Assembly: GCA_025917655.1 (NCBI GenBank)
Contig: CP084612.1
Coordinates: forward strand, 1,612,001-1,676,000
Length of the DNA stretch: 64,000 bases
Source: Chlorella sorokiniana
Taxonomy: Eukaryota; Chlorophyta; Trebouxiophyceae; Chlorellales; Chlorellaceae
Direction of reading: 5' to 3'
Shown in pieces: positions 23,724-41,822 of this stretch. Each line of letters begins with the position of its first letter. Positions within the stretch are counted from its first letter, which is position 1. The position numbers and the translations under genes are program-made. A model generated the notes under the pieces. It had not been told where the DNA came from. It saw nothing but the letters and a program-made list of their open reading frames with translations, and searched no databases.

Positions 23724-24525
23724 TCAACTCATCCGGGATGCAGGCAGCCGGCTGATCCTAACAGGCCCGGCCCGAGTGGGCTGGGCGCGCCGCCCGGCGC
23801 TGCCAACGTTGCGCTGAGCGTGGGTTTTCCCCGCGCCGCGCTGCCATGAAACATGAAACCGGCCCGAGACGCAAACTTCGCCCCCCCCGCCCGCAGCACT
23901 GCCCATTTCATTCCCGTCATTCCTGCGATTCTTACACCCCATCCATGCACAGCATGCGGTGGGCGCACCCAGCCTTGACAGCGCGCTTAGCTGGAACAAC
24001 AATCTGTGCAGTGAAGTCTGCTGCGGTGAGGGGAGCTGGTGTGAGGGAGGGATTGATTTGGTTGCTGCCTGCAGCTGCTGGCAGCACTGCCACTTGGTGG
24101 ATAAGCTCCCGGTTTTCTTGCAAAGCTGAATCTTTGCCACATTCCTCAAGGCAAGCCCGCATGGTGGATATGTCGAATTCATGGCTGCAACTTAATGGTT
24201 GCATCACAGCAGATGAAGGTAGGCAAGAAGTCAGCATGGCATGGGACACACGTGTGTTGCTGCTGTCCACACACCGATCCCCTGAGCCCAGCTTCTCGGG
24301 CATCGGAGCTGCATCTTTTTGCTCGGAGGGCTGGCGATTACTTTTAACTCGCTTCCTCGTTTTCACTCACACGTGACAGGCATCTGGTGTGGGCGGCACC
24401 AGCCCACACCCCTCGTGTTTCACCCCGGTGTGGGCCTGTCCTCGCGGACCCGTGCACGCGTTCCCTCCCGGCAGCTTGGTAGCCTCCCTGCGCAAGGTTC
24501 TCGAAGTCAGGCCGACAGGAGCGGC
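23724..24525. other. 5' flank of array gene A
   Basis: No gene seen. From about 24170 the sequence resembles the flanks upstream of copies B, D and E (the segment with GTATGTCGAATTCAT recurs upstream of B and D, near 27845 and 35245), so it belongs to the duplicated unit. It contains the promoter-proximal inverted repeat at 24386-24410. Confidence 0.5.
24386..24410. promoter_or_regulatory. conserved inverted repeat upstream of gene A
   Basis: Arms GGTGTGGGC and GCCCACACC with a 7-nt spacer, 116 bp upstream of the A start codon. The same element lies at 28069-28093 (B, perfect), 39546-39570 (E, 8-bp arms), 35460-35483 (D, one arm degenerate) and in decayed form near 31740 (C). Confidence 0.5.
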
Positions 24526-27513
24526 ATGCAGCGAAGCAGTGCCCACCCCAGGTGCCGGCTGTGGCCTTGCCTGCTGGTGATGGGTGAGTCGACGTCGACG
24601 GCGGAGCCGCCGCAATTAGCCTGGCAGTTGGCCTCGGTCGTGTGACCCTGCGCACCCATGGATGACCTGGCATGGTGCCCAACTTGTATGCTGTGCGCGT
24701 GCAGGGCTGCTGCTCCTCCTGCCGTGCCACGCAGCTGCTCAGTCCGTGTGAGGCGACGCTGCCTGGGCCGGCCTGCAGGCAGGCCTGCAACGGTCACTTG
24801 CCTTGTTTGGGCTTACAGTGTGTCCATCCGCAATGGAGCTTGCAAGACACGAAACACCACATCAGAGCCGCCTTTCTTGAGCTGGCACACCCAGCGCCTG
24901 CATGTCCATGTTCGCCACCTGCTGAGAGATTCCTTGCTGCCGCCGCCGCCTCTGGCACCACTTGAGCCGTGCAGGTTGCTGGACACCATCACCGGCATCA
25001 CCTTCATCGGTCGTACATCCTCCCTTTCTGATAGATTGCGTGGCGCTCGCCTGCGCTGGGGTGCTCAATCCTCCTGCCTCGCCTCCGTTTCATTCGTCCT
25101 TGGCAGCGAGGCTGATGAAGGGCTAGTGCAGTGCACGGTTGATGCGCTGCTCTTCCAGCTGCCACCCAGCCCCGGCGTCCCTCCGCGCGGCACGGCTCCC
25201 ATCATCACGTCGCCCCCTGTGTCCGTGGCGCTGCCCTCGGGGTTTAATGCGACAACCGTCACGTGCGGCAGCTTGGCTGCCCCACGCTCTGGCGCCTGTT
25301 GTGCCTGTATCTGCCCAGCTGCTGTCAGTGCATGATCCCTAGGACCGCCTCGCGGAAACCGTGTGCACACTGTGCAGGTTGGGACACACCTGTCCAGGCA
25401 CGTCGCCGCCTTCCACCTTTGCACCCGCGCCGCTGCCGCCCACGCTGCCACAGGCTGTCGATGGGCGTTCTGATGGAGGCGGGCGTCGAGTACGGCCTCT
25501 TCCCGCGTGTTTCGTGTCGTGCTGCGATATACTACTACTGCTCGTCGGCCAACATCGGCCCAATCTGCTCAGAAACTCCTGTGTCAGGCCCGGGAGCTGA
25601 CTACCTTTCCAACCTGCTGCTTTACTCCCCACAAGGCCGGGAGCCGTTCCTACAGACGCACGGCTCGCGCCTTGTGTATGCCATGTTGCTAGACAGCAGC
25701 CCCAGGTGGGCTGCTGCCACGGGCACAGCGCACATGCGTGCTCGGCAAAGGAGGCGTGCCAGGGGCCCGCCGTTGACTGTGCAGTTGCAATGAGGTGACC
25801 CAAACCCTGGCTGGCCGCCCTCTGCAGCCCACCGTCGCCGCCGCCGCCCTCGCCACCATTCCCCTCGCCCCCGCCACCCTCGCCCACGCCGCCGTCTTTG
25901 CCGCCGCCCTTGCCGCCGCCGCCCTCGCCACCACCGCCCTCTCCGCTGCCGCCCTCGCCACCACCGCCCTCCCCACCGCCCTCGGCCCCGCCTCCCTCGC
26001 CGCCGCCTCCCTCGCCGCCGCCTCCTCGCCGCCGCCTCCTCGCCACCACCCTCGCCGCCGCCTCCCTCGCCGCCGCCACCCTCGCCACCACCCTTTCCGC
26101 CGCCTCCTCTCCGCCGCCTCCCTCTCCGCCGCCTCCCTCTCCACCTCCACCCTCGCCGCCGCCTCCTCCCGCCTCCGCCCTCCCCACCGCCTCCCTCGCC
26201 GCCGCTGCCCTCGCCCCGCCCCGTCCCAAGCCGCGCCGCCGCCCGCCCAAGCCGCCTCCGCCCCGCCCCAAGCCACCTCCGCCCCGCCCCAAGCCGCCGC
26301 CCCACCCCAAGCCACCACCGCCTCGCCGCAAGCCACCCCCACCTCGCCCCAAGCCACCCCCACCTCGCCCTAAGCCTTCCCCTCCTCGCCCAAAGCCGCC
26401 GCTACCTCGCCCAAGCTGCCTCCCAAGCGTCCCAAGCCACCCCCGCCTCGCCCCAAGCCACCTCCGCTTCGCCCCCGTCCTCGCCCCCCTTTGCCGCGAC
26501 CCCCAGCAGCAGTCGGCGGCCATTTTCGGCGGCGTCAACACCAGCTACCGCGGCTTCGACTACACAGGTGGGTACAGGAAGAGTGGGGGGTGCGCCGGGC
26601 GTGCTGCTGCATGGTACTGGCAACCAGATGTGGGCTTCATGCTACGCACCCGCCTGCATCACCTTGCATGCACCCGCCTGCAGGCGGCCCCAAAACACCC
26701 TACACCTGCGCCCTGGGCGTGAGCACCCTGCTGTACAGCGACGGCAGCGGCACGCGCGTGGCCGCCCGGTTTGGCCCCGGCGGCGACCGCCCGGCCAGAC
26801 GCTGCTGCGCGTGGTGGAGTTCTCAAAAGGCGTCACGCGCGTGGCCGTGCAGCTGCGGGAGGTGGCTGGCGAGTGGAAGCTGAGCGGTGCGTGTCCGACG
26901 ATCGTGCAGCAGCTTTGTGCTTGGTGCTGCACGTATGCAGGCTGACTGCTAAGGGGGCATCGCACTTGGGGAGACGCATGCCGTGTGCTCCGCCCGTCGC
27001 AGTTGTGGCCGACGGGCGGCTGTGGACGGGGTGGGCCAGCTGGCGTTGCGCAACAACGTGGTGGTGGAGGTGAGCGCCAGCCGGCGGTTGGGTCGCGCAG
27101 GGGAGGGAGCACGCCGCGCTCGGTTGAGCATCTCGTCTGCTTGCAGCTGCGCAGCGAACTCGAAGCACTTGGCCTTGCACCGACATGGGTGCAGGCCCGG
27201 CCAGCTCTCGGATACGTGTCCGTATCGACGCCCCAGCTGCGCACCACCCTCCGCCCCGCGTTCGGGTACGCTGCACGGCATGGAGAACCTGCCTGGCAGC
27301 TGCGTGCGATGCTGCTGCCTGGCATGGCTGGCTGGTTCCCCTGCAGCGCTTGGCCCCTGGCGCCGCCTGCTCTGACCCGCCTGCTTGGTGTGCCTCCCTG
27401 CTGCAGCCGGCGTATCCGCAGTACGGCCAGTGGCTGGATGTGTACCTCATCAGGCTGCCCCCCCCCTGCCGCTGCCTGTGGCCGGCCTGCTGGGCGCCAC
27501 CTACCGCCCCTGA
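24526..27513 (+). CDS. array gene A: secreted Pro-rich stalk protein
   Basis: Predicted extracellular or cell-wall protein; no known family identified. Exons: 24526-24583, 24705-24747, 24819-25262, 25454-25705, 25828-26567, 26684-26886, 27003-27069, ~27147-27266 and 27407-27513. Exons 1-2 encode a signal peptide (MQRSSAHPRCRLW, then LLLLLPCHAAAQS). Exons 3-4 form a beta-rich domain (LRGARLRWGAQS, CTVDALLFQLPPSPGVPP, MEAGVEYGLFPRVSC, VSGPGADYLSNLLLYSP) with NATT and RNTT sequons. Exon 5 is a stalk of SPPPP blocks followed by PRPKPPP blocks. Exons 6-9 encode a second domain (TPYTCALGVSTLLYSDGSGT, AGEWKLS, YPQYGQWLDVYLIRL). Frame breaks lie in the stalk (two, at CCTCCTCG), at ~26790 and in exon 7; the same motifs are in frame in copy D. 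The exact C-terminus is uncertain. Confidence 0.7.
25828..26480 (+). repeat. Pro-rich stalk of gene A
   Basis: Low-complexity codons CCG/CCA/CCC/TCG giving first SP(3-5) blocks, then from about 26220 Lys/Arg-Pro blocks (PPRPKPPPP). The composition resembles hydroxyproline-rich cell-wall glycoproteins of green algae. Only the frame set by the exon 4 donor (phase 2) gives regular SPPPP; the other frames are Ala-rich or Arg-rich. Confidence 0.8.
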
Positions 27514-28204
27514 GCCCCGGATTGGTGTGGGTGTGGGTTTGGCCCCTCCGCATTACCACCACCTGTGCACTCCTGCCCTGCTTGTGGTGTTTCAAAGCAT
27601 GGTTGGTCCCCTCACTTCTACGAGCCGCTGCGTATGGAGCCTTGCGTATGGAAGATCTTTTGGAAAGTGCCTCTATGTGGGGCAGCAGTAGGCAACCTTT
27701 GCAACAAATCCTGCCTGCTGCAGTGAGGAGCGCTGCGTGAGGGAGGAGTAATTGTTGGCCCGCTAGCAGCGCTGCTGGCAGTGGTGGATTAGCTCCCCGG
27801 GTGCATGCGTGCAAGCTGCATGTGGCCAGATTCCAGCAGGGCGGGTATGTCGAATTCATCGCTGCAACTCAATGGGTGCATCACAGCAGGAGAAGCTAGG
27901 CAAGAAGTCGGATGGCATGGGACACATGTGTTGCTGCTGTCACCAGCTGTCCACACACCGATTCCCTGAGCCCAGCATCTGAGCACTCGGAGCTGCACCT
28001 TCCTGCTGGGAAAGTTAGCGATTAATTTAGCTCGCTTCCTCTTTCCTAGTCACAAGTTACACGCATCGGGTGTGGGCGGCACCTGCCCACACCCCCTCCT
28101 GTTTCACCCCAGGTGGGCCTGTCCTCGCGGGTGCACGCGTTCCCTCCCGGCAGCTTGGTAGCCTCCCTGCGCAAGTTTCTCGAAGTCAGGCCGACAGGAG
28201 CGGC
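27514..28204. other. A-B spacer
   Basis: 3' flank of gene A and 5' flank of gene B. The duplicated promoter segment begins near 27830. No independent gene is seen. Confidence 0.5.
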
Positions 28205-31179
28205 ATGCAGCGAAGCAGTTCCCACCCCAGCCGCCGGCACTGGCCTGGCCTGCTGGTGACGGGTGAGTCGACGGCGGAACCGCCGCCATCAGCCTGGCAG
28301 CTGGCCTCGGCCGTGTGACCCTGCAGCACCATGGCTGACTTGGAACGTTGCTGACCTTGTATGTTTTGCACATGCAGGGCTGCTGCTCCTCCTGCCGTGC
28401 CACGCGGCCGCTCAGTCCGTGTGAGGCGACGCTGCCTGGCCCATGGGCCGGCCTGCATGCAGGCCTGCAACGGTCACTTGCATTGTTTGGGCCTACAGTC
28501 CGTCCATCCGCAATGGAGCTTGCAAGACAGGAAACACCACATCAGAGCCGCCTTTCTTGAGCTGGCACACCCAGCGCCTGCATGTCCATGTTCGCTGCCT
28601 GCTGACGGAGATTCCTTGCCGCCGCCGCCGCCCCTGGCACCACTTGAGCCGTGTAGGGTGCTGAACACCACCACCGACAAATCGACGCCCGCATTAAGTA
28701 TTATCACACCTGGATTATTGACTGGCGTGCGCTTGCGCTGGGGAGCTCAATCCTCCTACCTCACCTCCGCCTTTTTCGACCTTGGCAGCAGTGCTAACGA
28801 GGTCGAGTGCACGGTTGCTGCGCTGCTCTTCCAGCTGCCCGCCAGCCCTGACGTCCCTCCACCGGGCACGGCTCCCATCTTCACGTCGCCGCCCGTGTCT
28901 GTGCGCTGTTCCAACCATTCACAGCGACAACCGTCACGTGCGGCAGCTTGGCTCTGGTGCCTGCTGTGCCTGCGGCTGCCCGCCTGCTGTCTGCATGATC
29001 CCTTGTGAGGACCGGCGCGCGGAAACCGCGTGCACACTGTGCAGGGTGGGTCACCCCTGTGCAAACACACCGCCGCCTCCACCTTTGCACCCGCGCCGCT
29101 GCCGCCCACGCTGCCACAGGCTGTCGATGGGCGTTCTGATGGAGGCGGGCGTCGAGTACGGCCTCTTCCCGCGTGTTTCGTGTCGTGCTGCGATATACTA
29201 CCACTGCTCGTCGGCCAACATCGGCCCAATCTGCTCAGAAACTCCCGTGTCAGGCCCGGGAGCTGACTACCTGTCCAACCTGCTGCTTTACTCCCCACAA
29301 GGCCGGGAGCCGTACCTACAGACGGACGGCTCGCGCCTTGTGTATGCCATGTTGCTAGACAGCAGCCCCAGGTGGGCTGCTGCGACGGGCACAGCGCACA
29401 TGGGCGCTCGGCAGAGGAGGCGTGCCAGGGGCCCGCCGTTGACTGTGCAGTTGCAATGAGGTGACCCAAACCCTGGCTGGCCGCCCTCTGCAGCCCACCG
29501 TCGCCGCCGCCGCCCTCGCCACCATTCCCCTCGCCCCCGCCACCCTCGCCCACGCCGCCGTCTTTGCCGCCGCCCTCGCCCCCGCCGCCCTCGCCACCAC
29601 CGCCCTCTCCGCTGCCGCCCTCGCCACCACCGCCCTCCCCACCGCCCTCGGCCCCGCCTCCCTCGCCACCACCCTCGCCGCCGCCTCCTCGCCGCCGCCA
29701 CCCTCGCCACCACCCTTTCCGCCGCCTCCCTCTCCGCCGCCTCCCTCGCCGCCGCCTCCCTCTCCACCTCCACCCTCGCCGCCGCCTCCTCCCCGCCTCC
29801 GCCCTCCCCACCGCCTCCCTCCCCACCGCCTCCCTCGCCGTCGCTGCCCTCGCCCCCGCCCGTCCCAAGCCGCCGCGCCGCCCCGCCCCAAGCCGCCTCC
29901 GCCCCCGCCCAAGCCACCTCCGCCCCGCCCCAAGCCGCCGCCCCACCCCAAGCCACCACCGCCTCGCCGCAAGCCACCCCCACCTCGCCCCAAGCCACCC
30001 CCACCTCGCCCTAAGCCTTCCCCTCCTCGCCCAAAGCCGCCGCTACCTCGCCCAAAGCTGCCTCCCAAGCGTCCCAAGCCACCCCCGCCTCGCCCCAAGC
30101 CACCTCCGCTTCGCCCCGTCCTCGCCCCCTTTGCCGCGACCCCCCAGCAGCAGTCGGCGGCCATTTCGGCGGCGTCAACACCAGCTACCGCGGCTTCGAC
30201 TACACAGGTGGGTACAGGAAGAGTGGGGGTGCGCCGGGCGTGCTGCTGCATGGTACTGGCAACCAGATGTGGGCTTCATGCTACGCACCCGCCTGCATCA
30301 CCTTGCATGCACCCGCCTGCAGGCGGCCCCAAAACACCCTACACCTGCGCCCTGGGCGTGAGCACCCTGCTGTACAGCGACGGCAGCGGCACGCGCGTGG
30401 CCGCCCGGTTTGGCCCCGGCGGCGACCGCCCGGCCAGACGCTGCTGCGCGTGGTGGAGTTCTCAAAAGGCGTCACGCGCGTGGCCGTGCAGCTGCGGGAG
30501 GTGGCTGGCGAGTGGAAGCTGAGCGGTGCGTGTCCGACGATCGTGCAGCAGCTTTGTGCTTGGTGCTGCACGTATGCAGGCTGACTGCTAAGGGGGCATC
30601 GCACTTGGGAGACGCATGCCGTGTGCTCCGCCCGTCGCAGTTGTGGCCGACGGGCGGCTGTGGACGGGGTGGGCCAGCTGGCGTTGCGCAACAACGTGGT
30701 GGTGGAGGTGAGCGCCAGCCGGCGGTTGGGTCGCGCAGGGGAGGGAGCACGCCGCGCTCGGTTGAGCATCTCGTCTGCTTGCAGCTGCGCAGCGAACTCG
30801 AAGCACTTGGCCTTGCACCGACATGGGTGCAGGCCCGGCCAGCTCTCGGATACGTGTCCGTATCGACGCCCCAGCTGCGCACCACCCTCCGCCCCGCGTT
30901 CGGGTACGCTGCACGGCATGGAGAACCTGCCTGGCAGCTGCGTGAGATGCTGCGCAGCATCTCACGCATGCTCTCAGCATGCTGCCTGGCATGGCTGGCT
31001 GGTTCCCCTGCAGCGCTTGGCCTCTGGCGCCGCCTGCTCTGACCCGCCTGCTTGGTGTGCCTCCCTGCTGCAGCCGGCATACCCGCAGTACGGCCAGTGG
31101 CTGGACGTGTACCTCATCAGGCTGGGCCCCCCTGCCGCTGCCCGTGGCCGGCCTGCTGGGCGCCACCTACCGCCCCTGA
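28205..31179 (+). CDS. array gene B: secreted Pro-rich stalk protein, near-identical to A
   Basis: Exons by homology to A: 28205-28262, 28378-28420, 28499-28937, 29120-29371, 29494-30207, 30323-30525, 30641-30707, ~30785-30903 and 31074-31179. Signal peptide from MQRSSSHPSRRHW joined to LLLLLPCHAAAQS. The N-terminal domain has LTGVRLRWGAQSSYLTSAF, CTVAALLFQLPASPDVPP and MEAGVEYGLFPRVSC. The stalk is about 26 nt shorter than in A and still bipartite (SPPPP then PRPKPPP). One-base breaks relative to A: a missing G near 28905, ATTTCGG instead of ATTTTCGG near 30163, plus the shared breaks in exons 6 and 7. A 34-bp extra segment near 30945-30980 repeats the CTGCGTGAGATGCTGCGCAG sequence as a partial inverted repeat within the last intron. 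Confidence 0.7.
29494..30120 (+). repeat. Pro-rich stalk of gene B
   Basis: Same two-part organisation as in A: SPPPP-type repeats to about 29860, then PRPKPPPP-type repeats. The homopolymer lengths in CCCC(C) stretches differ from A at several places. Confidence 0.8.
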
Positions 31180-31855
31180 GCCCGCGATTGGTGTGGGTGT
31201 GGCTGCAGCCCGGGTGCTTGACGCTACCTGTGTGCGCTTCTTCGTTGCTTGTGGGGTCAACAAGCATGGGTGACGCATCTGAGCCACGGGGTGTGCAGCC
31301 TTGATTTGTGAAAGACCTTTGGAAGCGGCTCTGTCTGGCCCAGCACCAGGACAACTTTTGCAGCAGAGCGTTCCTGCTTCGGTGAGGAGATCTGGCGAAA
31401 GGGAGAAACATTCTGGCTGCTGCCTGTCAGCAGTGCTTAACTAACTCACATGCTTGAATGCTTGCAAAGCTGCTTACTGCAGTAGACTCCTTACTGCCAG
31501 ATTCCTGAAGGCACCCGGCCGGACGGACCGCCAGTCCATTTCTGCAGCGTATGGTTGCATTACAGCTAATGAAGCTTGGGAAGAAACCGGCACATGGCAT
31601 AGCACGCAAAGTGTGTTGCTGCCGTCCGAACACCGATCCTCAGCTTCTTCAGCCGCCGGGGCTACACCTTTCTGCTGGGATGTGTGCGATTCATCCGACC
31701 TGTTTGCGCCTCTCTCTCCACCAGTGGCATGCATCAGGTGTGGGTGGCACCCGCCCACGCTTCCTCCTGTGTCAGGGCTTGTCCTCGCGGCTGCCTCCCA
31801 GCAGCTTGGTAGGTTTGCCTGCGCAAGGTCCTGACGTCAGGCCGGCAGGAGCGGC
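31180..31855. other. B-C spacer
   Basis: Diverged from the other spacers, although TGTGGGTGGCACCCGCCCAC near 31740 still recalls the conserved inverted repeat. No gene is recognised. Confidence 0.45.
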
Positions 31856-34800
31856 ATGCAGCGAAGCAGCACCCGCGCGAGTGGCCGGCTGTGCGGGGGC
31901 CTGTTGGTGATGGGTGAGTCGACGGCGGAACCGCCGCCGCGAGTCTTGCAGCGAGCTCTGGCCGTGTGACCCAGCAGCACCATGGCTGACCCGGAATGGT
32001 GCTGACGTTGTTTGTTGTGATGCGCAGGGCTGCTGCTCCTCCTGCCGCGCCACGCGGCCGCTCAGTCTGTGTGAGGAGAGCTGCCTGGGCGCCTGCATGC
32101 AAGCCTGCAGTGGCCTCCGCAGCGCTTGCCTTGCGTTTGGGTTGGCAGCATCTGATGTGGTGGCGTGGATAGAGCACACCACACCAGAGCGGCCTTAGCG
32201 GGGGCGGCACTTTAGGCGCTTGCACATCCATCTTTTCAAGCTGCTGAGGCAGATTCGTTGCTGCCGCCGCCGCCCTCCGGCCCCACTTGAACCGCGCAGG
32301 GTGCTGGACACCATTTCCACCGGCCCCTTTTTTGGCTCTGCTCCCGTCGGTCCTGAGTTCTCTGTTGGCTTACGTTTGCGCTGGGGCGCTCAGTCCTCCT
32401 ACCTCACCTCAGCCTCCTTCGACCTGAGCGGCAGGCCTGATGCAGTCCAGTGCACTGTTGATGTGCTGCTCTTCCAGCTGCCGCCCAGCCCCGACGTCCC
32501 TCCACCGGGCACGGCTCCCATCTACACGTCGCCGGCCCAATCCTTGGCGCTGCCCAGCCGCAATCAACAGACGACCTTCATGTGCGGCGGCATGGCTGCT
32601 CCACCCTCTCTCGCCTGGCGTGCCTGTGGCCACTCGCGCTGCTGCCAGTGCAAGATCCATGGCGAGGATCGCCATGCAAAGACCGCATGCTTGCTGTACA
32701 GGCGCCCCGCTGTTTTCCACCTGTGCATCTGCACTGCTGCTCCCCCCGCTGGCGCAGGCTGCCGATGGGCGTGTTGATGGAGGCTGGCGGGAGTACGCGC
32801 TTGTCCCGCGCTTCACGTGTCAAGCAGGGCTGTACAGCTACTGCGAGACCCTTGAGTGCCCAACACTCCCTGTGTCCGGCCCGGGAGCTGACTACATTGC
32901 CGCCGTGTACTATTATTCCTCCTCCGCGAACACGGAGCCATACCTGGAGGATGCTTCTTTCGACAGTGTCGTGTACAGAGTGAAGCTTGAGGCCAGCCCC
33001 AGGTGGGTTGGAGGCGGGCAGAGCGCACGTAGCTGCTTGGCAGAGGGGGCGCGCCGGGCGCCCGCCGTTGAATGTGCACTCGCAACGAAGTGACCCAAGT
33101 CCTGTCTGGCCACCCTCTGCAGCCCACCCTCACCACCACCCCCTCGCCGCCGCCGCCTTCGCCACCGCCGCCCTCCCCGCCGCCGCCTTCGCCACCGCCG
33201 CCCTCCCCGCCGCCGCCCTCGCCGCCGCCGCCCTCGCCGCCGCCGCCCTCGCCACCGCCGCCCTCCCGCCGCCGCCTTCGCCACCGCCGCCCTCGCCGCC
33301 GCCGCCCTCGCCGCCGCCGCCCTCGCCGCCGCCTCCCTCCCGCCGCCGCCTTCGCCACCGCCGCCCTCGCCACCGCCGCCCTCGCCCCCACCCTCTCCGC
33401 TGCCGCCCTCGCCACCACCGCCCTCCCCACCGCCCTCGCCCCCGCCGCCCTCGCCGCCGCCTCCTCGCCACCGCCGCCCTCTCCGCCGCCGCCTTCGCCC
33501 CCGCCACGCCCAAAGCCTCCCCCGCCCGCCCAAAGCCACCTCCGCCCGCCCAAAGCCACCTCCGCCCCGCCCAAAGCCACCTCCGCCCCGCCCAAAGCCG
33601 CCTCCGCCTCGCCCAAAGCCGCCTCCGCCTCGCCCCAAGCCGCTCCTCCCCGCCCCAAGCCGCCCCCGCCCCGCACCAAGCCTTCCCCGCCACGCCCCAA
33701 GCCGCCCCCGCCTCGCCCCAAGCCGCCCCGCCACGCCCCAAGCCGCCCCCGCCTCGCCCCAAGCCGCCCCCGCCTCGCCCCAAGCCGCCCCCGCCTCGCC
33801 CCAAGCCGCTCCTCCCCCGCCCCAAGCCGCCGCCGCCCCGCCCCAAGCCGCCCCCGCCGCGTCCAAAGCCTCCAATGCGCTCCCCCAAGCCGCCGCCCCC
33901 TCGTCCTCGCCCCCACTGCCACGGGGCCCCCGCAGCTGGAGGCTGCCATTTCCGGCAGCGCCAACACCAGCTATCGTGGCTTTGACTACACTGGTGGGTG
34001 CAGGAAGAGGAATTGCGTCGGTTCATGCTGCTGCAAGGTGTTGATAACGGGCACTCCGATTCCTGCTGCACTCTTGCCTGCAGGCGGCCCCAAAACACCC
34101 TACACCGGCGCCCTGGGCGTGAGCACCCTGCTGTACAGCGACGGCAGCGGCACGCGCGTGGTCGCCCGGTTTGGCCCGGCGGCGACCGTCCCGGCCAGAC
34201 GGTGCTGCGCGTGGTGGAGTTCTCAAAAGGCGTCACGCGCGTTGTTGTGCAGCTGCGGCAGTTGGCCGGCGAGTGGAAGCTGAGCGGTGTGTGGGCCGTG
34301 CTGCGCAGAATGTTTGCTTTGTGGTGCCAGGGATGCGCTGGGGTTGCGCGGGGGCATCACACTGGGAAGACGCATGCCGTGTGCTCCGCCCGTCGCAGTT
34401 GTGGCCGACGGGCGGCTGTGGACGGGGTGGGCCAGCTGGCGCTGCGCAACAACGTGGTGGTGGAGGTGAGCGCCAGCCGGCGGTTGGGTTGCACAGGGGA
34501 GGGAGCACACCTCGCTCGGTTGAGCACCTCGTCTGCTTGCAGCTGCGCAGCGAACTCGAAGCACTTGGCCTTGCACCGACATGGGTGCAGGCCCGGCCGG
34601 CTCTTGGGTACGTGTCCGTATCGACGCCCCAGCTGCGCACCACCCTCCGCCCCGCGTTCGGGTACGCTGCACGGCATGGAGAACCTGCCTGGCAGCTGCG
34701 TGCGATGCTGCTGCCTGGCATGGCTGGCTGGTTCCCCTGCAGCGCTTGGCCCCTGGCGCCGCCTGCTCTGACCCGCCTGCTTGGTGCGCCTCCCTGCTGC

Positions 34801-34908
34801 AGCCGGCGTACCCGCAGTACGGCCAGTGGCTGGATGTGTACCTCATCAGGCTGGGCCCCCCTGCCGCTGCCCGTGGCCGGCCTGCTGGGCGCCACCTACC
34901 GCCCCTGA
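31856..34908 (+). CDS. array gene C: secreted Pro-rich stalk protein
   Basis: Exons: 31856-31913, 32028-32070, 32216-32581, 32758-33002, 33123-33993, 34084-34286, 34399-34465, ~34543-34662 and 34803-34908. The signal peptide begins MQRSSTRASGRLCGGL. Exon 3 starts later than in A and B, directly at the segment matching RLHVH, so the A/B leader with RNTT is absent. The N-terminal domain has RLRWGAQSSYLTSASFDLSG, CTVDVLLFQLPPSPDVPP, RFTCQAGLYSYC and PVSGPGADYIAAVYYY. The stalk (33123-33905) is long, starting with regular SPPPP. The C-terminal domain follows as in A. One-base breaks occur at 32785 (GGGG expected), near 34173 and in exon 7. C is the most diverged member among A-D in its promoter and leader. 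Confidence 0.7.
33123..33905 (+). repeat. Pro-rich stalk of gene C
   Basis: SPPPP blocks from 33130 to about 33500, then RPKPPPP blocks to about 33880, mostly in 12-18 bp GC-rich repeats; some sub-blocks are out of frame at missing C residues. Confidence 0.8.
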
Positions 34909-35574
34909 GCCCCGTCTTTGTGCGGCTGAAGCCGGGTGCTTGATAACCTCACCACCTGTGCGCTTCTCCCCTGGATATGGCGTTGACAGCATGGTGGAAT
35001 GCTTTGTTTGCACTAGCAGCAGATGCGTGTGGGGCCTTGTTGCATATGCAAGAACTTGTGGGAGTGCCTCTTTCTGGCCGAGCACTAGGCAGCCTGTGCG
35101 GAGAAGCCTGCCTGCCTGCTGGCAGCGCTGCAGTGAAGAGCGGCGTGAGGGAGGAATACTCTGGTGGCTCTTGCTGCCTGCAGTGGTGGATCTGCTTGCG
35201 CTTCATGCATGCAAAGCTGCATCTGGCCAGATTCCAGCAGGGTGGGTATGTCGAATTCATCGCTGCAACTCAATGGATCACAGCAGATGAAGCTAGGCAA
35301 GAAGTCGGATGGCATGGGACACGCGTGTGTTGCTGCTGTCCACACACCGATCCCCTGAGCCCTGGCTTCTTGGGCACTCGGAGCTGCACCTTTCAGTTCG
35401 GAAAGCTCGCGATTCATTCAGCTCGTTTGCTCGATCCCACTCTCAAGTGACACCCATCGGGTGTGGGCGGCACCTGCCCACCCTCCCTCTGCTTCAGGGC
35501 TTGCCTCGCTCCCCCCCCAGCAGCTTGGCAGGCTCCTTGCGCAAGGTCGTCGAAGTCAGCCCGGCAGGAGCGGC
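34909..35574. other. C-D spacer
   Basis: The first ~200 bp match the D-E spacer closely (CATGGTGGAATGCTTTGTTT recurs at ~34990 and ~39096). This shows that the 3' flank was duplicated together with the gene. Confidence 0.5.
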
Positions 35575-38500
35575 ATGCAGCGAAGCAGTTCCCACCCCAG
35601 CCGCCGGCACTGGCCTGGCCTGCTGGTGACGGGTGAGTCGACGGCGGAACCGCCGCCATCAGCCTGGCAGCTGGCCTCGGCCGTGTGACCCTGCAGCACC
35701 ATGGCTGACTTGGAACGTTGCTGACCTTGTATGTTTTGCACATGCAGGGCTGCTGCTCCTCCTGCCCTGCCACGCGGCTGCTCAGTCCGTGTGAGGCGAC
35801 GCAGCCTGGGCCGGCCTGCTTGCATGCCTGCTATGGCCTCCGCAGCGCTCGCCTTGCGCTTGGGTTGGCAGCATGATTATCTGATGTGGTGGCGTGGATA
35901 GAGCACACCACACCAGAGCCGCCTCATCGGGGCTGGCGCTTCAGGCGCTTGCACGTCCATATTTTCAAGCTGCTGAAGCGGATTCCTTGCTGCCGCCGCC
36001 GCCTTCCGGCACCACTTGAGCTGCGCAGGGTGCTGGACACCTCCCCGTCGGCGCCTCCTCGTCCGGCTACTCTTTCATCAGCTCTGAAGTATCTGTTGGC
36101 TTCCGCCTGCGCTGGGGTGCTCAGTCCTCCTACCTCACCTCCGCCTCCTTCGACCTGAGCGGCATTCCTGGTGCAGCCCAGTGCACGGCCAATGTGCTGC
36201 TCTTCCAGCTGCCCGCCAGCCCCGACGTCCCTCCGCCGGGCACGGCTCCCATCTTCACTTCGCCGTCATCGTCTTTGGCGCTGTTCGGGCCCTTTCAACA
36301 GACAACCTTCACGTGCGGCGGCATGGCTGCTCCACCCTCTTTCGCCTGCCGTGCATGTGGCCACTCGCGCCGCTGCCAGGGCGCGATCCCTTACGACGAT
36401 CGCCATGCAAAGACCGCATGCACACTGTACAGGCACACCGCTGGTTTTCACCTATGCACCTGCACTGCTGCTCCCCCGCTGGCACAGGCTGCCGATGGGC
36501 GTTTTAATGGAGGCTGGCGTGGAGTACGCCCTTGTCCCACGCTTTACGTGTGGGACAGGGCTGTACTTTTACTGCTCGACAGGTTTCGTGGTGTGCCCGT
36601 CATTTCCTGTGTCCGGTCCGGGAGCTGACTACATTTCCGTCGTGTACTATGGGACCCTGGAGGGCAGGGAGCCCTTCCTGCAACAGGGTGGCGACGGCGA
36701 TTTTGTGTACAAAGTGGTGCTGCTGGCCAGCCCCAGGTGGGTTGTGGAGGCGGGCAGAGCGTCGTTGCTTTGCAGAGGAGGCGCACCGGGGCCCGTCATT
36801 GAATGTGCAATTGTGCGATTGCACCGATTGCAACGAGGTGACCCAAGTTCTGTCTGGCCACCCCTTGCAGCCCACCCAGCCCACAGCCCTCGCCGCCGCC
36901 ACCCTCGCCGCCGCCGCCTTCGCCACCGCCGCCCTCCCCGCCGCCGCCTTCGCCGCCGCCGCCCTCGCCGCCGCCGCCCTCGGCGCCGCCTCCCTCCCGC
37001 CGCCGCCTTCGCCACCGCTGCCCTCGCCGCCGCCGCCCCCCCCGCCGCCGCCTTCGCCGCCGCCGCCCTCCCCGCCGCCGCCGCCGCCGCCGCCGCCCTA
37101 TCCGCCGGCTCCCTCTCCGCCGCCGCCCTCGCCCCCCGCCCTCTCCGCCGCCTCCCTCTCCGCCGCCCCGCCCCAAGCCGCCTCCGCCACGCCCAGAACC
37201 TCCCCGCCCCCCAAGCCTCCTCCGCCTCACCCTAAGCCGCCCCCAAGCCTCCTCCGCCTCACCCTAAGCCGCCCCCCGCCCGCCCAAAGCCGCCCCACCC
37301 CGCCCCAAGCCGCCACCGCCTCGCCCCAAGCCGCCCCCGCCCGCCCAAAGCCGCACCCACCCGGCCCCAAGCCGCCACCACCTCGCCCAAAGCCGCCGCC
37401 ACCCTCGCCGCCGCCGCCTTCGCCACCGCCGCCCTCCCCGCCGCCGCCTTCGCCGCCGCCGCCCTCGCCGCCGCCTTCGCCACCGCTGCCCTCGCGCCGC
37501 CGCCGCCCTCGCGCCGCCTCCCTCCCGCCGCCGCCTTCGCCACCGCCGCCCTCGCCCCCCCCGCCCTCTCCGCCGCCGCCCTCGCCTCCCCCGCCCTCTC
37601 CGCCTCCGCCCCGCCCCAAGCCGCCACCGCCTCGCCCCAAGCCGCCTCCGCCCCGCCCGAAACCTCCTCCGCCTCGCCCCAAGCTGCCTTCGCCCGCCCC
37701 AAGCCGCCTCCGCCCCGCCCCAAGCCTTCCCCGCCTCGCCCCAAGCTGCCTTCGCCCCGCCCCAAGCCGCCCCCGCCCGCCCAAAGCCGCCGCCGCCTCG
37801 CCCCAAGCCTCCCCCGCCCCGCCCAAAGCCGCACCCACCCGGCCCCAAGCCGCCACCACCTCGCCCAAAGCCGCCCCCGCCACGCCGCAGGCCGCCTCCA
37901 CCGCGCCCCAAGCCGCCGTCGCCACGCCGCAGGCCGCCGCCGCCGCGCCGCAGGCCGCCTCCGCCGCGTCCAAAGCCGCCAATGCGCTCCCCCAAACCGG
38001 CGCCACCCCCGTCCTCGCCCCCTTTGCCGCGGGTCCCCCGCAGCTGGAGGCTGCCATTTCCGGCGGCGCCAACACCAGCTATCGTGGCTTTGACTACACA
38101 GGTGGGTGCAGGAAGAGGGAGCTGCGTCGGTTCATGCTGTGCAATGTGTTGACGACGGGCACTCCGCTTCCTGCTGCTCGCCCGCCTGCAGGCGGCCCCA
38201 AAACACCCTACACCGGCGCCCTGGGCGTGAGCACCCTGCTGTACAGCGACGGCAGCGGCACGCGCGTGGCCGCCCGGTTTGGCCCCGGCGGCGACCGTCC
38301 CGGCCAGATGCTGCTGCGCGTGGTGGACTTTTCAAGGGGCGTCACGCGAGTAACTGTGCAGCTGCGGGCGGTGGCTGGCGAGTGGAAGCTGAGCGGTGCG
38401 TGGGCCGTGGCTGCGCAGAAGGTTGACTTCGTGGTGCCAGGGATGCACTGGGGTTGCACCGGGGGCATCGCTATTGGGGATATGCATGCCTTGTGCTCGA

Positions 38501-39014
38501 CTTGTCGCAGTTGTGGTCGACGGGCGGCTGTGGACGGGTGTGGGCCAGCTGGCGCTGCGCAACAACGTAGTGGTGGAGGTGAGCGCCAGCCTCCAGTTGG
38601 GCGCTTGTGTTGCCGGGGGAGCACACCGCGCTCGGTTGAGCACCAGGCTGTGTGTGGTCATGGACAGCGAAGCACTTTCACCGACGTGGGTGCAGGCTCG
38701 GCCGGCCCTCGCATACAATGTCTCCATATCTACGCCCCAGCTGCGCACCACCCTCAGCCCTCGCGTCCGGGTGCGCCGTGTGCACCGGAACCTGCTTGGA
38801 TGCTGCTGACCTGGCAGGCGCTGCATGTCTGGATCTCGACCCTGCAGCACGTGGCCTCAGGCGCCGCCTGCTCTCACCCGCCTCAATTGTTGCGCCTCCC
38901 TGCTGCAGCCGGCGTACCCGCAGTACGGCCAGTGGCTGGATGTGTACCTCATCAGGCTGGGCCCCCCTGCCGCTGCCCGTGTCCGGCCTGCTGGGCGCCA
39001 CCTACCGCCCCTGA
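35575..39014 (+). CDS. array gene D: secreted Pro-rich stalk protein, best-preserved C-terminal domain
   Basis: Exons: 35575-35632, 35748-35790, 35945-36312, 36488-36736, 36871-38101, 38192-38395, 38511-38578, an unclear exon 8, and 38909-39014. Signal peptide MQRSSSHPSRRHW plus LLLLLPCHAAAQS. The N-terminal domain has FRLRWGAQSSYLTSASFDLS, CTANVLLFQLPASPDVPP, MEAGVEYALVPRFTC and PVSGPGADYISVVYYG. The stalk is the longest of the array (~1.1 kb), with two SPPPP-to-PRPKPPP cycles. Exons 6 and 7 are fully in frame: TPYTGALGVSTLLYSDGSGT, ARFGPGGDRPGQMLLRVVDF, AGEWKLS and DGRLWTGVGQLALRNNVVVE. They are the reference for the breaks in A-C. One missing C in exon 3 near 36047. The end is either ATYRP-stop at 39012 after one base is added to a C6 run, or later in the uncorrected frame. 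Confidence 0.75.
36871..37990 (+). repeat. Pro-rich stalk of gene D, internally duplicated
   Basis: Two successive cycles, each with SPPPP-type repeats (36890-37160 and 37395-37610) followed by RPKPPPP-type repeats (37160-37390 and 37610-37870), then an Ala/Pro/Arg tail. The second cycle looks like an internal duplication of the first. Confidence 0.75.
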
Positions 39015-39662
39015 GCCCCGGATTGGTGCAGCTGCGGCCCGGGTGCTTGATAACCTCACCACCTGTGCGCTTCTTCCCTGGATGTGGCGTTGACAGCATG
39101 GTGGAATGCTTTGTTTGCACTAGCAGCAGCTGCGTGTGGGGCCTTGTTGCATATGCAAGAACTTGTGGGAGTGCCTCTGTCTGGCCCAGCACCAGGCAAC
39201 CTGTGCAGCAGTGCCTGCCTGCCTGCTGGCAGCGCTGCAGTGAAGGGGAGCTGGGGTGAGGGGGAGTGCTATGGCGGCCTGGTGCCTGCAGCGCATTTCA
39301 GCTCACCTGCTTGCATGCATGCAAAGCAGAATGTGGCCAGCTTCCTGAAATCAGGGCGGGGATATCAATTTCATCGGTGCAGCTCAATGGTCACATATGC
39401 ATGGCAGCAGCCAGGGAGGAAGTAGCATGGCAAATCTTTGAGCCCAGCTTCTTTCGGCTACTTAGGGCTGCACCTTTCTGCTTGCAAAGTGGGGCGATTC
39501 ACGTTGTTCGCTTGTGCTTTCTCACTCCACACGCGACTCGCATCGGGTGTGGGCGGCACCTGCCCACACTCCCCCTGTTTCAGGGCTTGGCTCGCAGTTC
39601 CCTCCCGGCAGCTCGGCAGGCTCCTTGCGCAAGGTCATCAGAGCCAGGACGGCGGGAGCGGC
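39015..39662. other. D-E spacer
   Basis: Matches the C-D spacer near its start. It carries the inverted repeat GGTGTGGGC / GCCCACAC at 39546-39569, 94 bp before the E start codon. Confidence 0.5.
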
Positions 39663-41822
39663 ATGCAGCGAAGCAGTTCCCACCCCAGCCGCCGGCACTG
39701 GCCTGGCCTGCTGGTGACGGGTGAGTCGACGGCGGAACCGCCGCCATCAGCCTGGCAGCTGGCCTCGGCCGTGTGACCCTGCAGCACCATGGCTGACTTG
39801 GAACGTTGCTGACCTTGTATGTTTTGCACATGCAGGGCTGCTGCTCCTCCTGCCGTGCCACGCGGCTGCTCAGACCGTGTGAGGCGGCGGTGCCTGTGCT
39901 CGTTTAAGCCGAAATCTTGCATGCTGGCCTGCACAGGCCACGGCGGCACCTGCCTTGTTTGGGCTTGCTGCCTGTTTGTGCACAATGGGGCTTGCATAAC
40001 GGGTCGCAGGCTCACGACGCCAGTGCTGCCATTGTGGAGCTGGCGCACCCAGCGCGTGCCGTGTCCGCTGTGGCTGCCTTGTGACGGGGATTCCTTGCCC
40101 CTGCCGCCGCATCTGGCACGCCTTATCCTGCGGCTTCATCCCACGCAGGGTGCTGGACACCACTGCCAAATCTATCGATATCGGGGCCCGGACGGGTTGA
40201 GCACCATATATCGCTCTTCTTTCATCACTCCTTCCGACTTGTTGGGCCTGCGCCTGCGATGGGGTGCTCAATCCTCTTACCTCCTCACCGCCACCTTCCC
40301 CCTTGCCGCTCCCACGAGCGGCCAGTGCACGGTTGATGCGCTTCTCTTCCGGCTGCCCGCCAGCCCCGAAGTCCCTCCGCCGGGCACGCCTCCCATCTTC
40401 ACGTCGCCGCCCGTGTCCGCGGTGTTGCCGCAAGAATCTGGGCTGACCACCTCGACAGTTGCAAACGTCACGTGCGGCTGCTTGGCTTCTCCTTGCTCTG
40501 GCGCCCAACATACCTGTGGCCGCGCACCTGCGTGATTCCTTGGGGAAACGCCGTGCGGAGGGTGCCAGCACATCGCGCAGGGTGGGGCACACCTGTGCAG
40601 GCCCGCCGCCGCCTTCCATCCTGCAACCCCGTCGCTGCTCCCCCGTGGCAGGTTGTCGATGGGCGTCCCAATGGAGGCGGGCGCCGAGTACGGCCTCTTC
40701 CCGCGAGTTTCGTGCCAGGCGGCGCTGCTCACAGCCTGCGAAAGTGTGGGCGGGAGCAACGGCATAACAAGATGCCCAAATGTCCCTGTGCCAGGCTCAG
40801 GAGTTGACTATATTTCCAACCTGGATCTTGTGACTCTTATGACAGGACCCTCCATCCAGGGGTCCATGCAGTCTGCTGCATATGCGGTGCTGCTGGTCAG
40901 CCCCAGGTGGGTTGCTGGGATGGCTTGGGCGCAGCTGGGTGCTCGGCAGATCTGGGGTAGGCGTGCCAGGTGCCCGCGGGTGCCAGGCGCCCGCCGTTGA
41001 GTGTGCAGTCGCAATGGGGCGACCCAACCCTGGCTGGCCACCCCTGCAGCCCACCCTCACCACCGCCCCCTCCCCGCCGCCGCGGCGGTTGGCGCTGGTT
41101 GGCGGCGCGCTGGACGCCGTCACAACGCTGGGCAGCGCCAAGCCTGTGACCGCCACCAAGTGGGTGGCGGTGCTGTTCAAGGTGGACCGCGCCACGCAGC
41201 TGAGCCAGGTGGCGGTGGACATGACGCCTTCCACCACCATCACCATCGCCCTCACCGGCATCAGGACCGCCTCTGTCGCCACCGGCGGCCTGATCCCCAC
41301 CGTCACCACGGACGCCCCGCAACAACCACCATCTCCAGCCAGGCCTTCACCGCTCCGGCCGCCCCAAGGCACAAATTCTTCGCTTTTGACCTCGCCCCCA
41401 ACTCACCCTGGCCCCGGCAAGTACGCCATCGTGCTCAAGTCGGACGCCGCGGGCACGCAGGTCTACGACAGCATCCTGCAGTCGCTCACCGACCTGCTGT
41501 GCCTGGGCAACGCCAACGCCGGCGTCACCGTGCTGGACTACCAGTTCACCTCCAACTCCGGGACCCTCTGGTGAGGCGGCGCGGGGGGAAGGGGGCGATT
41601 GCATGCTCCAGGCAGAGCGGCGGAAGTGCGTGGGGTAGACAGCCCAAAAGGCGTTCTGCCACCACGTGCGGCTGCCGTCTGCCTGTGCTGCTGACACAGC
41701 TGATGCGCCCCTTGCACCGCAGGACGAAGAACGCGGTGTTGCCTCTGCTGGGCGGCCTGCCCATCGCCGGGGATCTGCTGCCCAAGCCGTACCGCATCAG
41801 AATTGCTGGTACCTCAGTTTGA
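39663..41822 (+). CDS. array gene E: shared N-terminal half, different C-terminal domain, no long stalk
   Basis: Exons: 39663-39720, 39836-39878, ~40149-40471, 40652-40906, 41050-41570 and 41723-41822. Exons 1-4 match the array (signal peptide; LRLRWGAQSSYLLTATF; CTVDALLFRLPASPEVPP; MEAGAEYGLFPRVSC; PVPGSGVDYISNL). At exon 5 the usual acceptor (CTGCAG before CCCACC) leads to only PTLTTAPSPPP, then a new domain: KPVTATKWVAVLFKVDRATQ, LSQVAVDMTPSTTI, FFAFDLAPNSP, GKYAIVLKSDAAGTQVYD and VTVLDYQFTSNSGTLW. This resembles bacterial choice-of-anchor beta-sandwich domains in layout; that is my inference. Terminal stop at 41820 after PYRIRIAGTSV. Three missing C residues in exon 5 and one base in exon 3 restore frame and phase. 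Confidence 0.7.

What the first reader, a model, noticed from the sequence alone, without database searches (positions are those of the whole stretch)
24172..41822. Five-gene tandem array encoding signal peptide, beta-rich domain, giant Pro stalk and C-terminal domain
Five direct paralogs with the same exon plan occupy 17.6 kb. Each has a signal peptide, a conserved N-terminal domain (WGAQSSYLTS, LLFQLP.SPDVPP, MEAGVEYxLxPR) and, in four, a bipartite SPPPP/PRPKPPP stalk and a shared C-terminal domain. I cannot place either globular domain in a named family; pherophorins share the head-stalk-head plan but not these motifs. This looks like an expanding family of cell-wall or mating/adhesion-type proteins and is the strongest candidate here for an undescribed system.
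Basis: partly seen in the sequence, partly recalled or inferred. Interest (0 to 1): 0.85.

Follow-up and report, generated by a model that had tools for sequence, protein, structure and literature searches.

The report
Variable-head, constant-tail algal wall protein array
Five neighbouring genes of what looks like a green alga encode secreted, proline-stalked wall-type proteins whose head domains differ strongly between copies while their tails stay much alike, a pattern that hints at a recognition role but does not prove one.

Summary
The array is real: five direct paralogs (24526-27513, 28205-31179, 31856-34908, 35575-39014, 39663-41822). Each has a signal peptide and a two-exon head. Four continue into an SPPPP / RPKPPPP stalk and a shared tail; the fifth has an unrelated tail whose distant C2 relatives score above the cut-off for choice-of-anchor R. 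Three C8 genes carry two heads plus the tail; seven further loci carry the tail. No Pfam, NCBIfam or PDB family is matched convincingly by head or tail; one head (copy 4) reaches choice-of-anchor R at 14.4 bits, far below its cut-off of 30. Frame breaks in copy 3's tail look like assembly errors: a metagenome protein differs by single bases at all four. New here: tail exons are about 3-6 times less diverged than their introns in five of six pairs; in the two closest pairs head exons are instead more diverged than the introns beside them (copies 1-2 exon 3: 27% against 7%), in the other eight exon 3 is about level; all five genes share an upstream element perfect nowhere else in the 38.8 Mb genome. 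Best reading: chimeric hydroxyproline-rich wall glycoproteins with diverging heads; recognition is possible but unproven.

The parts
24386..24407 (+). copy 1 upstream element GGTGTGGGYGGCACCNGCCCAC, 140 bp before ATG
   Evidence: 0 mismatches
24526..27513 (+). copy 1: signal peptide e1 24526-24583, e2 24705-24747; head e3 24975-25262, e4 25454-25703; stalk+FDYTG e5 about 25828-26567; tail e6 26684-26886, e7 27003-27069, e8 about 27147-27263, e9 27407-27513
28069..28090 (+). copy 2 upstream element, 136 bp before ATG
28205..31179 (+). copy 2: e1 28205-28262, e2 28378-28420; head e3 28657-28937, e4 29120-29369; stalk e5 about 29494-30207; tail e6 30323-30525, e7 30641-30707, e8 about 30785-30901, e9 31074-31179
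31737..31758 (+). copy 3 upstream element, 119 bp before ATG
31856..34908 (+). copy 3: e1 31856-31913, e2 32028-32070; head e3 32300-32581, e4 32758-33000; stalk e5 about 33123-33993; tail e6 34084-34286, e7 34399-34465, e8 about 34543-34659, e9 34803-34908
35460..35481 (+). copy 4 upstream element, 115 bp before ATG
35575..39014 (+). copy 4: e1 35575-35632, e2 35748-35790; head e3 36029-36312, e4 36488-36734; longest stalk e5 about 36871-38101; tail e6 38192-38395, e7 38511-38578 (by border word; the aligner ran on to 38606), e8 about 38657-38773, e9 38909-39014
39546..39567 (+). copy 5 upstream element, 117 bp before ATG
39663..40904 (+). copy 5 signal peptide (39663-39720, 39836-39878) and head (e3 about 40149-40471, start uncertain; e4 40652-40904)
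41050..41822 (+). copy 5 tail, exons 41050-41570 and 41723-41822 with stop; two inferred frame breaks; no SPPPP/RPKPPPP stalk; domain shared with C2:4777503-4778217

Best explanation
The array encodes secreted chimeric hydroxyproline-rich glycoproteins of the cell wall or outer matrix of what is probably a green alga. The signal peptide sends them out; the SPPPP pentads and then the cationic, acid-free RPKPPPP heptads form a stiff rod (expected to be hydroxylated and O-glycosylated) that holds the protein in the wall; the conserved tail is the shared anchoring or assembly module, also used behind other heads elsewhere in the genome; the head is the outward, variable part. Duplication and exchange between copies keep tails alike and leave heads different. 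Shown by sequence: architecture, modularity, tail conservation, head divergence above introns in the two closest pairs, shared upstream element. Inferred: secretion, glycosylation, wall location, anchoring by stalk and tail, any ligand binding by heads.
For: Signal peptide and head in 5 of 5 copies, stalk and tail in 4 of 5. Stalk about 235-405 residues, no D or E, periods 15 and 21 nt. Tail at 14 loci, a lower bound: C10 x4, C8 x3, C9 x2, C11 x4, C13 x1 (all 14 modelled). Upstream of the C9 tail at 204-205 kb lies a Cys-rich head, a family also found about 2 kb before the C13 tail and at further C9 places. Tail exons 6-9 against introns 5-8: odds ratio 0.14-0.33, p 5e-8 or below, in 5 of 6 pairs (counts). 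Head exons against introns 2+3: copies 1-2 exon 3 77/281 against 29/405, p 1e-12; copies 3-4 exons 3+4 115/522 against 45/404, p 1e-5, with the rise and fall near exon-3 edges in both. In Chlamydomonas, PPSPX motifs of GP1 anchor fused proteins to the wall (PMC11785195, abstract seen).
Against: No transcript, proteome or localisation data were held. Head and tail lack a convincing family match. The head excess is seen in 2 of 10 pairs; in the other 8 exon 3 is about level with introns 2 and 3. Exon 4 of copies 1-2 is nearly identical (5/250), tail pair 1-2 shows no difference (6/493 against 2/450), and the first head of C8a/C8c is conserved (27/501 in exons against 60/310 in introns). In the head the synonymous rate also exceeds intron divergence for copies 1-2 (dS 0.43), so positive selection alone is not shown. 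The pairs and regions tested were chosen after seeing the data. Stalk frames need 4-9 inferred frame changes per copy.
Confidence: 0.68

Rival explanations
1. Recognition proteins: heads diversified by selection for telling partners, viruses or bacteria apart (mating, self/non-self or receptor roles), presented on a wall-anchored rod.
For: Head exons more diverged than neighbouring introns in the two closest copy pairs; in C8a/C8c the second head is likewise somewhat more diverged (134/466 against 77/355, p 0.02) while the first is conserved.
Against: No ligand, expression or population data; 8 of 10 pairs show exon 3 level with introns; dS raised together with dN; exon 4 of copies 1-2 not diverged; one genome only; the third C8 gene was not compared.
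Confidence: 0.25
2. Ordinary structural wall proteins: heads drift under relaxed constraint, tails and stalks do the work, and patchy conversion gives the exon/intron contrast.
For: Intron 1 is identical in copies 2, 4 and 5 (0/115) beside strongly diverged blocks, so conversion is patchy; exon 3 dN/dS averages about 0.8 over 10 pairs.
Against: The contrast follows exon-3 edges in two pairs; R, G, Cys and other head positions stay conserved over 11 heads.
Confidence: 0.35
3. Decaying pseudogene array with frameshifts and no product.
For: Inferred breaks: tails of copies 1-4 have 4, 4, 4 and 1, heads of copies 2-4 one each, copy 5's tail two, stalks 4-9.
Against: P0001 differs from the window by 5 single-base indels, 4 of them within 12 nt of the 4 inferred tail breaks of copy 3; copy 1 has no break in its head; C8 last exons are unbroken; tails are conserved above introns. 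The other breaks were not checked against independent sequence.
Confidence: 0.07

Closest known systems
Pherophorins (volvocine algae)
   Same: Expanded gene family of extracellular proteins (PMC4844696, passages seen); globular part - proline rod - globular part (recalled).
   Different: No PF12499 match among 10 tail and 11 head members or in the genome (where no control rang, so absence is not shown).
Extensin-type and chimeric hydroxyproline-rich glycoproteins (GP1, sexual agglutinins)
   Same: [10 protein letters not shown]-type rods on secreted proteins; agglutinins present heads on rods (recalled).
   Different: Second rod segment of cationic RPKPPPP heptads; heads and tail without convincing library match; no mating link shown.
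Choice-of-anchor R domain (NF041539)
   Same: Copy 5's tail aligns with the L049 tail (83%), P0002/P0003 (39%) and L050/L051 (30%); of these lineages L048 tail scores 38.1, L050 37.9 and P0002 33.9 bits, above the cut-off of 30. One of 11 heads, copy 4, is hit at 14.4 bits, E 0.028, in register from its start.
   Different: Copy 5's own tail and the L049 tail give no hit, P0003 24.9 bits; 10 of 11 heads give none; heads against this set by profile comparison E 0.19.
Root_cap (PF06830) and VWD (PF00094) domains
   Same: C9 tails begin GDPHW.GFD and end in GLLGE; window tails end GLLGATYRP: a likeness from recall only.
   Different: No match among 10 tail members or in the genome (no control rang for VWD).

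Membership tests
Pherophorins | PF12499 (DUF3707) domain in head or tail | tested here: not met
   0 of 10 tail and 0 of 11 head members at E<=10; genome scan 0 matches, no control rang
Pherophorins | two globular parts joined by a proline-rich rod on a secreted protein (layout recalled) | tested here: met
   copies 1-4; signal peptide judged by eye, no predictor run
Hydroxyproline-rich glycoproteins (chimeric) | signal peptide plus repeated SP(n) motifs | tested here: met
   15-nt SPPPP array in copies 1-4
Hydroxyproline-rich glycoproteins (chimeric) | hydroxylated, O-glycosylated proline and wall location | not testable with these tools
   needs protein chemistry
Choice-of-anchor R (copy 5 tail) | NF041539 score of 30 bits or more | tested here: inconclusive
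   copy 5 tail itself no hit; relatives 38.1, 37.9, 33.9 above and 24.9 below the cut-off, L049 tail none
Choice-of-anchor R (heads) | NF041539 score of 30 bits or more, or a significant profile-profile match | tested here: not met
   best of 11 heads 14.4 bits, E 0.028; hhalign probability 0.3%, E 0.19; a lead, not membership
Root_cap / VWD (tail) | PF06830 or PF00094 match | tested here: not met
Sexual agglutinins | gamete-specific expression and mating function | not testable with these tools
   no expression data held

The most novel reading that the evidence does not exclude
A variable-head, constant-tail surface recognition family in a green alga: head exons are diversified (by exon-scale exchange and selection) faster than their own introns, displayed on a cationic proline rod with a common anchoring tail, and the five genes of the array share one upstream control element. 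It would be a candidate for self/non-self, mating or virus/bacterium discrimination.
Probability: 0.25. Interest if true: 0.82.

Novelty: new variant of a known kind. Interest (0 to 1): 0.58.

Why it matters
Head and tail look like domain families that Pfam and NCBIfam do not hold, and the tail is used in a modular way on at least five contigs of one genome. If the excess divergence of the head exons over their introns is due to selection, this array is a testable entry point to surface recognition in an alga; the shared upstream element makes joint regulation testable too.

Tried and rejected
Pseudogene array: judged unlikely on the metagenome comparison, which covers copy 3's tail only, and on tail conservation. 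Pherophorin, Root_cap and VWD membership: tested, not met. Heads as choice-of-anchor R: I expected it from the residue pattern; the profile comparison does not support it, the one sub-cut-off hit is a lead. Global protein search: head none of 2252 candidates, tail one of 2842, P0001. Collection scans with the tail alignment: 22 pattern stretches in genome contigs and 39 in viral contigs, none confirmed. C5:2139297 as a further tail: not confirmed. Other chance-level family hits: phd_fam 0.19, TraC 0.012 (2 of 10 tails), Tsp 0.31; SAP 0.13, Pur_DNA_glyco 0.16; YqbF 0.29. AlphaFold2: head model mean pLDDT 47.2, choice-of-anchor R relative P0003 59.9; both too weak to carry an argument, and fold search was off. 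Rfam: nothing at gathering threshold. Phages, megablast of 28400-30000: no match. Rows 'e6' used a wrong frame and are not used. The dN/dS values rest on seven tail segments picked by conserved-peptide patterns, so they are biased low; the argument therefore rests on whole exons. The site-class count (20 of 78 exon-3 differences with both bases present in other copies) is compatible with exchange but is no test. Literature: 7 searches; nothing on this family was seen in the listed titles and abstract starts, but listings were capped (15 of 289, 10 of 14) and only open PMC papers are held.

Full report
What is there. The window is G000:C10:1612001-1676000 of a 38.8 Mb, 15-contig genome. No taxonomic test was made; fragments beside the array read by eye like genes of a green alga (a cyclophilin, a DEAD-box helicase, kinases, uroporphyrinogen decarboxylase, no family search run on them). 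Between 24.4 and 41.8 kb lie five direct paralogs. Exons 1-2 encode a signal peptide judged by eye (MQRSSSHPSRRHWPGLLVTGLLLLLPCHAAAQS in copies 2 and 4), exons 3-4 a head of about 175-183 residues, exon 5 the stalk ending in FDYTG, exons 6-9 the tail ending GLLGATYRP. Copy 5 keeps exons 1-4 and then reads into a different tail.

Stalk. The best frame path gives about 243, 235, 284 and 405 residues in copies 1-4: SPPPP pentads (15 nt) then RPKPPPP heptads (21 nt), 12-26 Lys, 20-36 Arg, no Asp or Glu. The path scores for P, S and K, needs 6, 4, 9 and 8 frame changes, and drifts into another frame over its last stretch, so lengths are estimates.

Frame breaks. P0001, a metagenome protein, aligns end to end (423 of 423) to window 34025-35287 with 5 single-base indels. 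Four (34177, 34427, 34648, 34854) lie within 12 nt of the 4 breaks that I had inferred in the tail of copy 3 (34172, 34427, 34659, 34859); the fifth, at 34347, lies in an intron. In the C8 paralogs the last exon is unbroken. Assembly error is the simplest reading for copy 3; strain difference is not excluded, and the breaks of the other copies were not checked.

Family. The head occurs in C10 (5 genes) and C8 (3 genes, each with two head-like domains in tandem). The tail occurs at 14 loci: C10 x4, C8 x3, C9 x2, C11 x4, C13 x1. A C5 candidate was not confirmed. The C9 gene at 202-206 kb has a Cys-rich head, a serine-proline run and a PPPPKPKP run before the tail; that head family has further matches on C9, C13 and, weakly, C8. 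I did not read the heads of the C11 genes. So the basic-proline segment plus tail looks like a module behind varied heads. Copy 5's tail is shared with a C2 gene (70-84% over three stretches) and more distantly (30-41%) with another C2 gene, L048, whose tail, joined over a frame break, scores 38.1 bits against NCBIfam choice-of-anchor R, cut-off 30. The genome scan finds two further C2 places over the cut-off and two below it, with 0 of 14 controls. Copy 5's own tail and the L049 tail have no direct hit, so the placement is by transitivity.

What the domains are. Heads and tails gave no credible Pfam match (4 proteins, 6, 10 and 11 members) and no credible PDB match (the best value, E 1.6e-4 to a designed protein, covers 54 residues and is not repeated by the profile). 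In NCBIfam the 10 tails gave only chance-level hits. Of the 11 heads one, copy 4 (hand-joined near its start), is hit by choice-of-anchor R at 14.4 bits, E 0.028, residues 9-112 to profile 7-102. I had guessed this family from the pattern before testing, which makes the hit more interesting, but it is half the cut-off and hhalign of heads against that set gives E 0.19. C9-type tails recall Root_cap/VWD domains (GDPH..GFD, final GLLG), but those models gave no match. The head structure model has low confidence (mean pLDDT 47.2).

Evolution. Substitutions per aligned site, gaps left out. Tail exons 6-9 against introns 5-8: 0.030-0.074 against 0.16-0.31, odds ratio 0.14-0.33 in 5 pairs; pair 1-2 is nearly identical throughout (6/493 and 2/450). 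My first test left out exon 8 and intron 7 and gave 0.10-0.21. Head: copies 1-2 exon 3 77/281 against introns 2+3 29/405; with exon 4 (5/250, not diverged) and intron 4 added still 82/531 against 33/529, p 2e-6. Copies 3-4 exons 3+4 115/522 against introns 2+3 45/404, or 58/521 with intron 4. In the other 8 of 10 pairs exon 3 (0.25-0.32) is about level with introns 2 and 3 (0.24-0.37), while exon 4 (0.34-0.40) is mostly above them. Sliding windows show the contrast near exon-3 edges, cleaner for 1-2 than for 3-4. C8a/C8c: first head conserved (exons 27/501, introns 60/310), second not (134/466 against 77/355, p 0.02). Pairs were chosen after inspection. Head dN among the five copies: exon 3 0.16-0.42 with dS 0.29-0.49, exon 4 0.32-0.58 apart from copies 1-2 (some pieces trimmed at breaks). 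Because dS rises with dN, exchange or local hyper-divergence must contribute. Exon 1 and intron 1 are identical in copies 2, 4 and 5 (0/58, 0/115), a sign of recent conversion.

Upstream element. GGTGTGGGYGGCACCNGCCCAC, a pattern drawn from the five copies, occurs without mismatch at those five places only in the genome, 115-140 bp before the ATGs; four other places, none on C8, have two mismatches, and the reversed control pattern has none. Window shuffles give a mean of 0.06 at up to 3 mismatches. By eye its flanks form an inverted repeat in copies 1, 2 and 5; copy 3 would need two G-U pairs and copy 4 has one mismatch.

Mechanism. The most likely function is that of chimeric hydroxyproline-rich wall glycoproteins; GP1 PPSPX motifs are reported to anchor proteins in the Chlamydomonas wall (PMC11785195, a preprint, abstract and outline seen). 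That heads face outward and bind something is inference from their divergence. Other papers: PMC10762512 and PMC4844696 (passages); the rest as search listings.

Noticed in passing
24386-24407, 28069-28090, 31737-31758, 35460-35481, 39546-39567: Upstream element, perfect at exactly five places in the genome, one before each copy.
   Followed up: yes
window 34025-35287 against P0001: Five single-base indels against a metagenome protein: the assembly seems to carry frequent indel errors in G+C-rich stretches.
   Followed up: partly
L037, L038, L039 (C8): Two-headed relatives: between L037 and L039 the first head is conserved and the second diverged; L038 not compared.
   Followed up: partly
G000:C2 4.74-4.78 Mb (L048-L051): Genes with choice-of-anchor R domains, a family curated for bacteria and archaea, in a eukaryote near the end of contig C2.
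   Followed up: partly
G000:C9 76-80 kb: Several Cys-rich head domains in a row, like the one in front of a C9 tail gene.
   Followed up: no
window 5.9-13.5 kb, - strand: Fragments that read by eye like a GH16-type glucanase and a large secreted beta-helix or G8-like protein near the array; no family search run.
   Followed up: no
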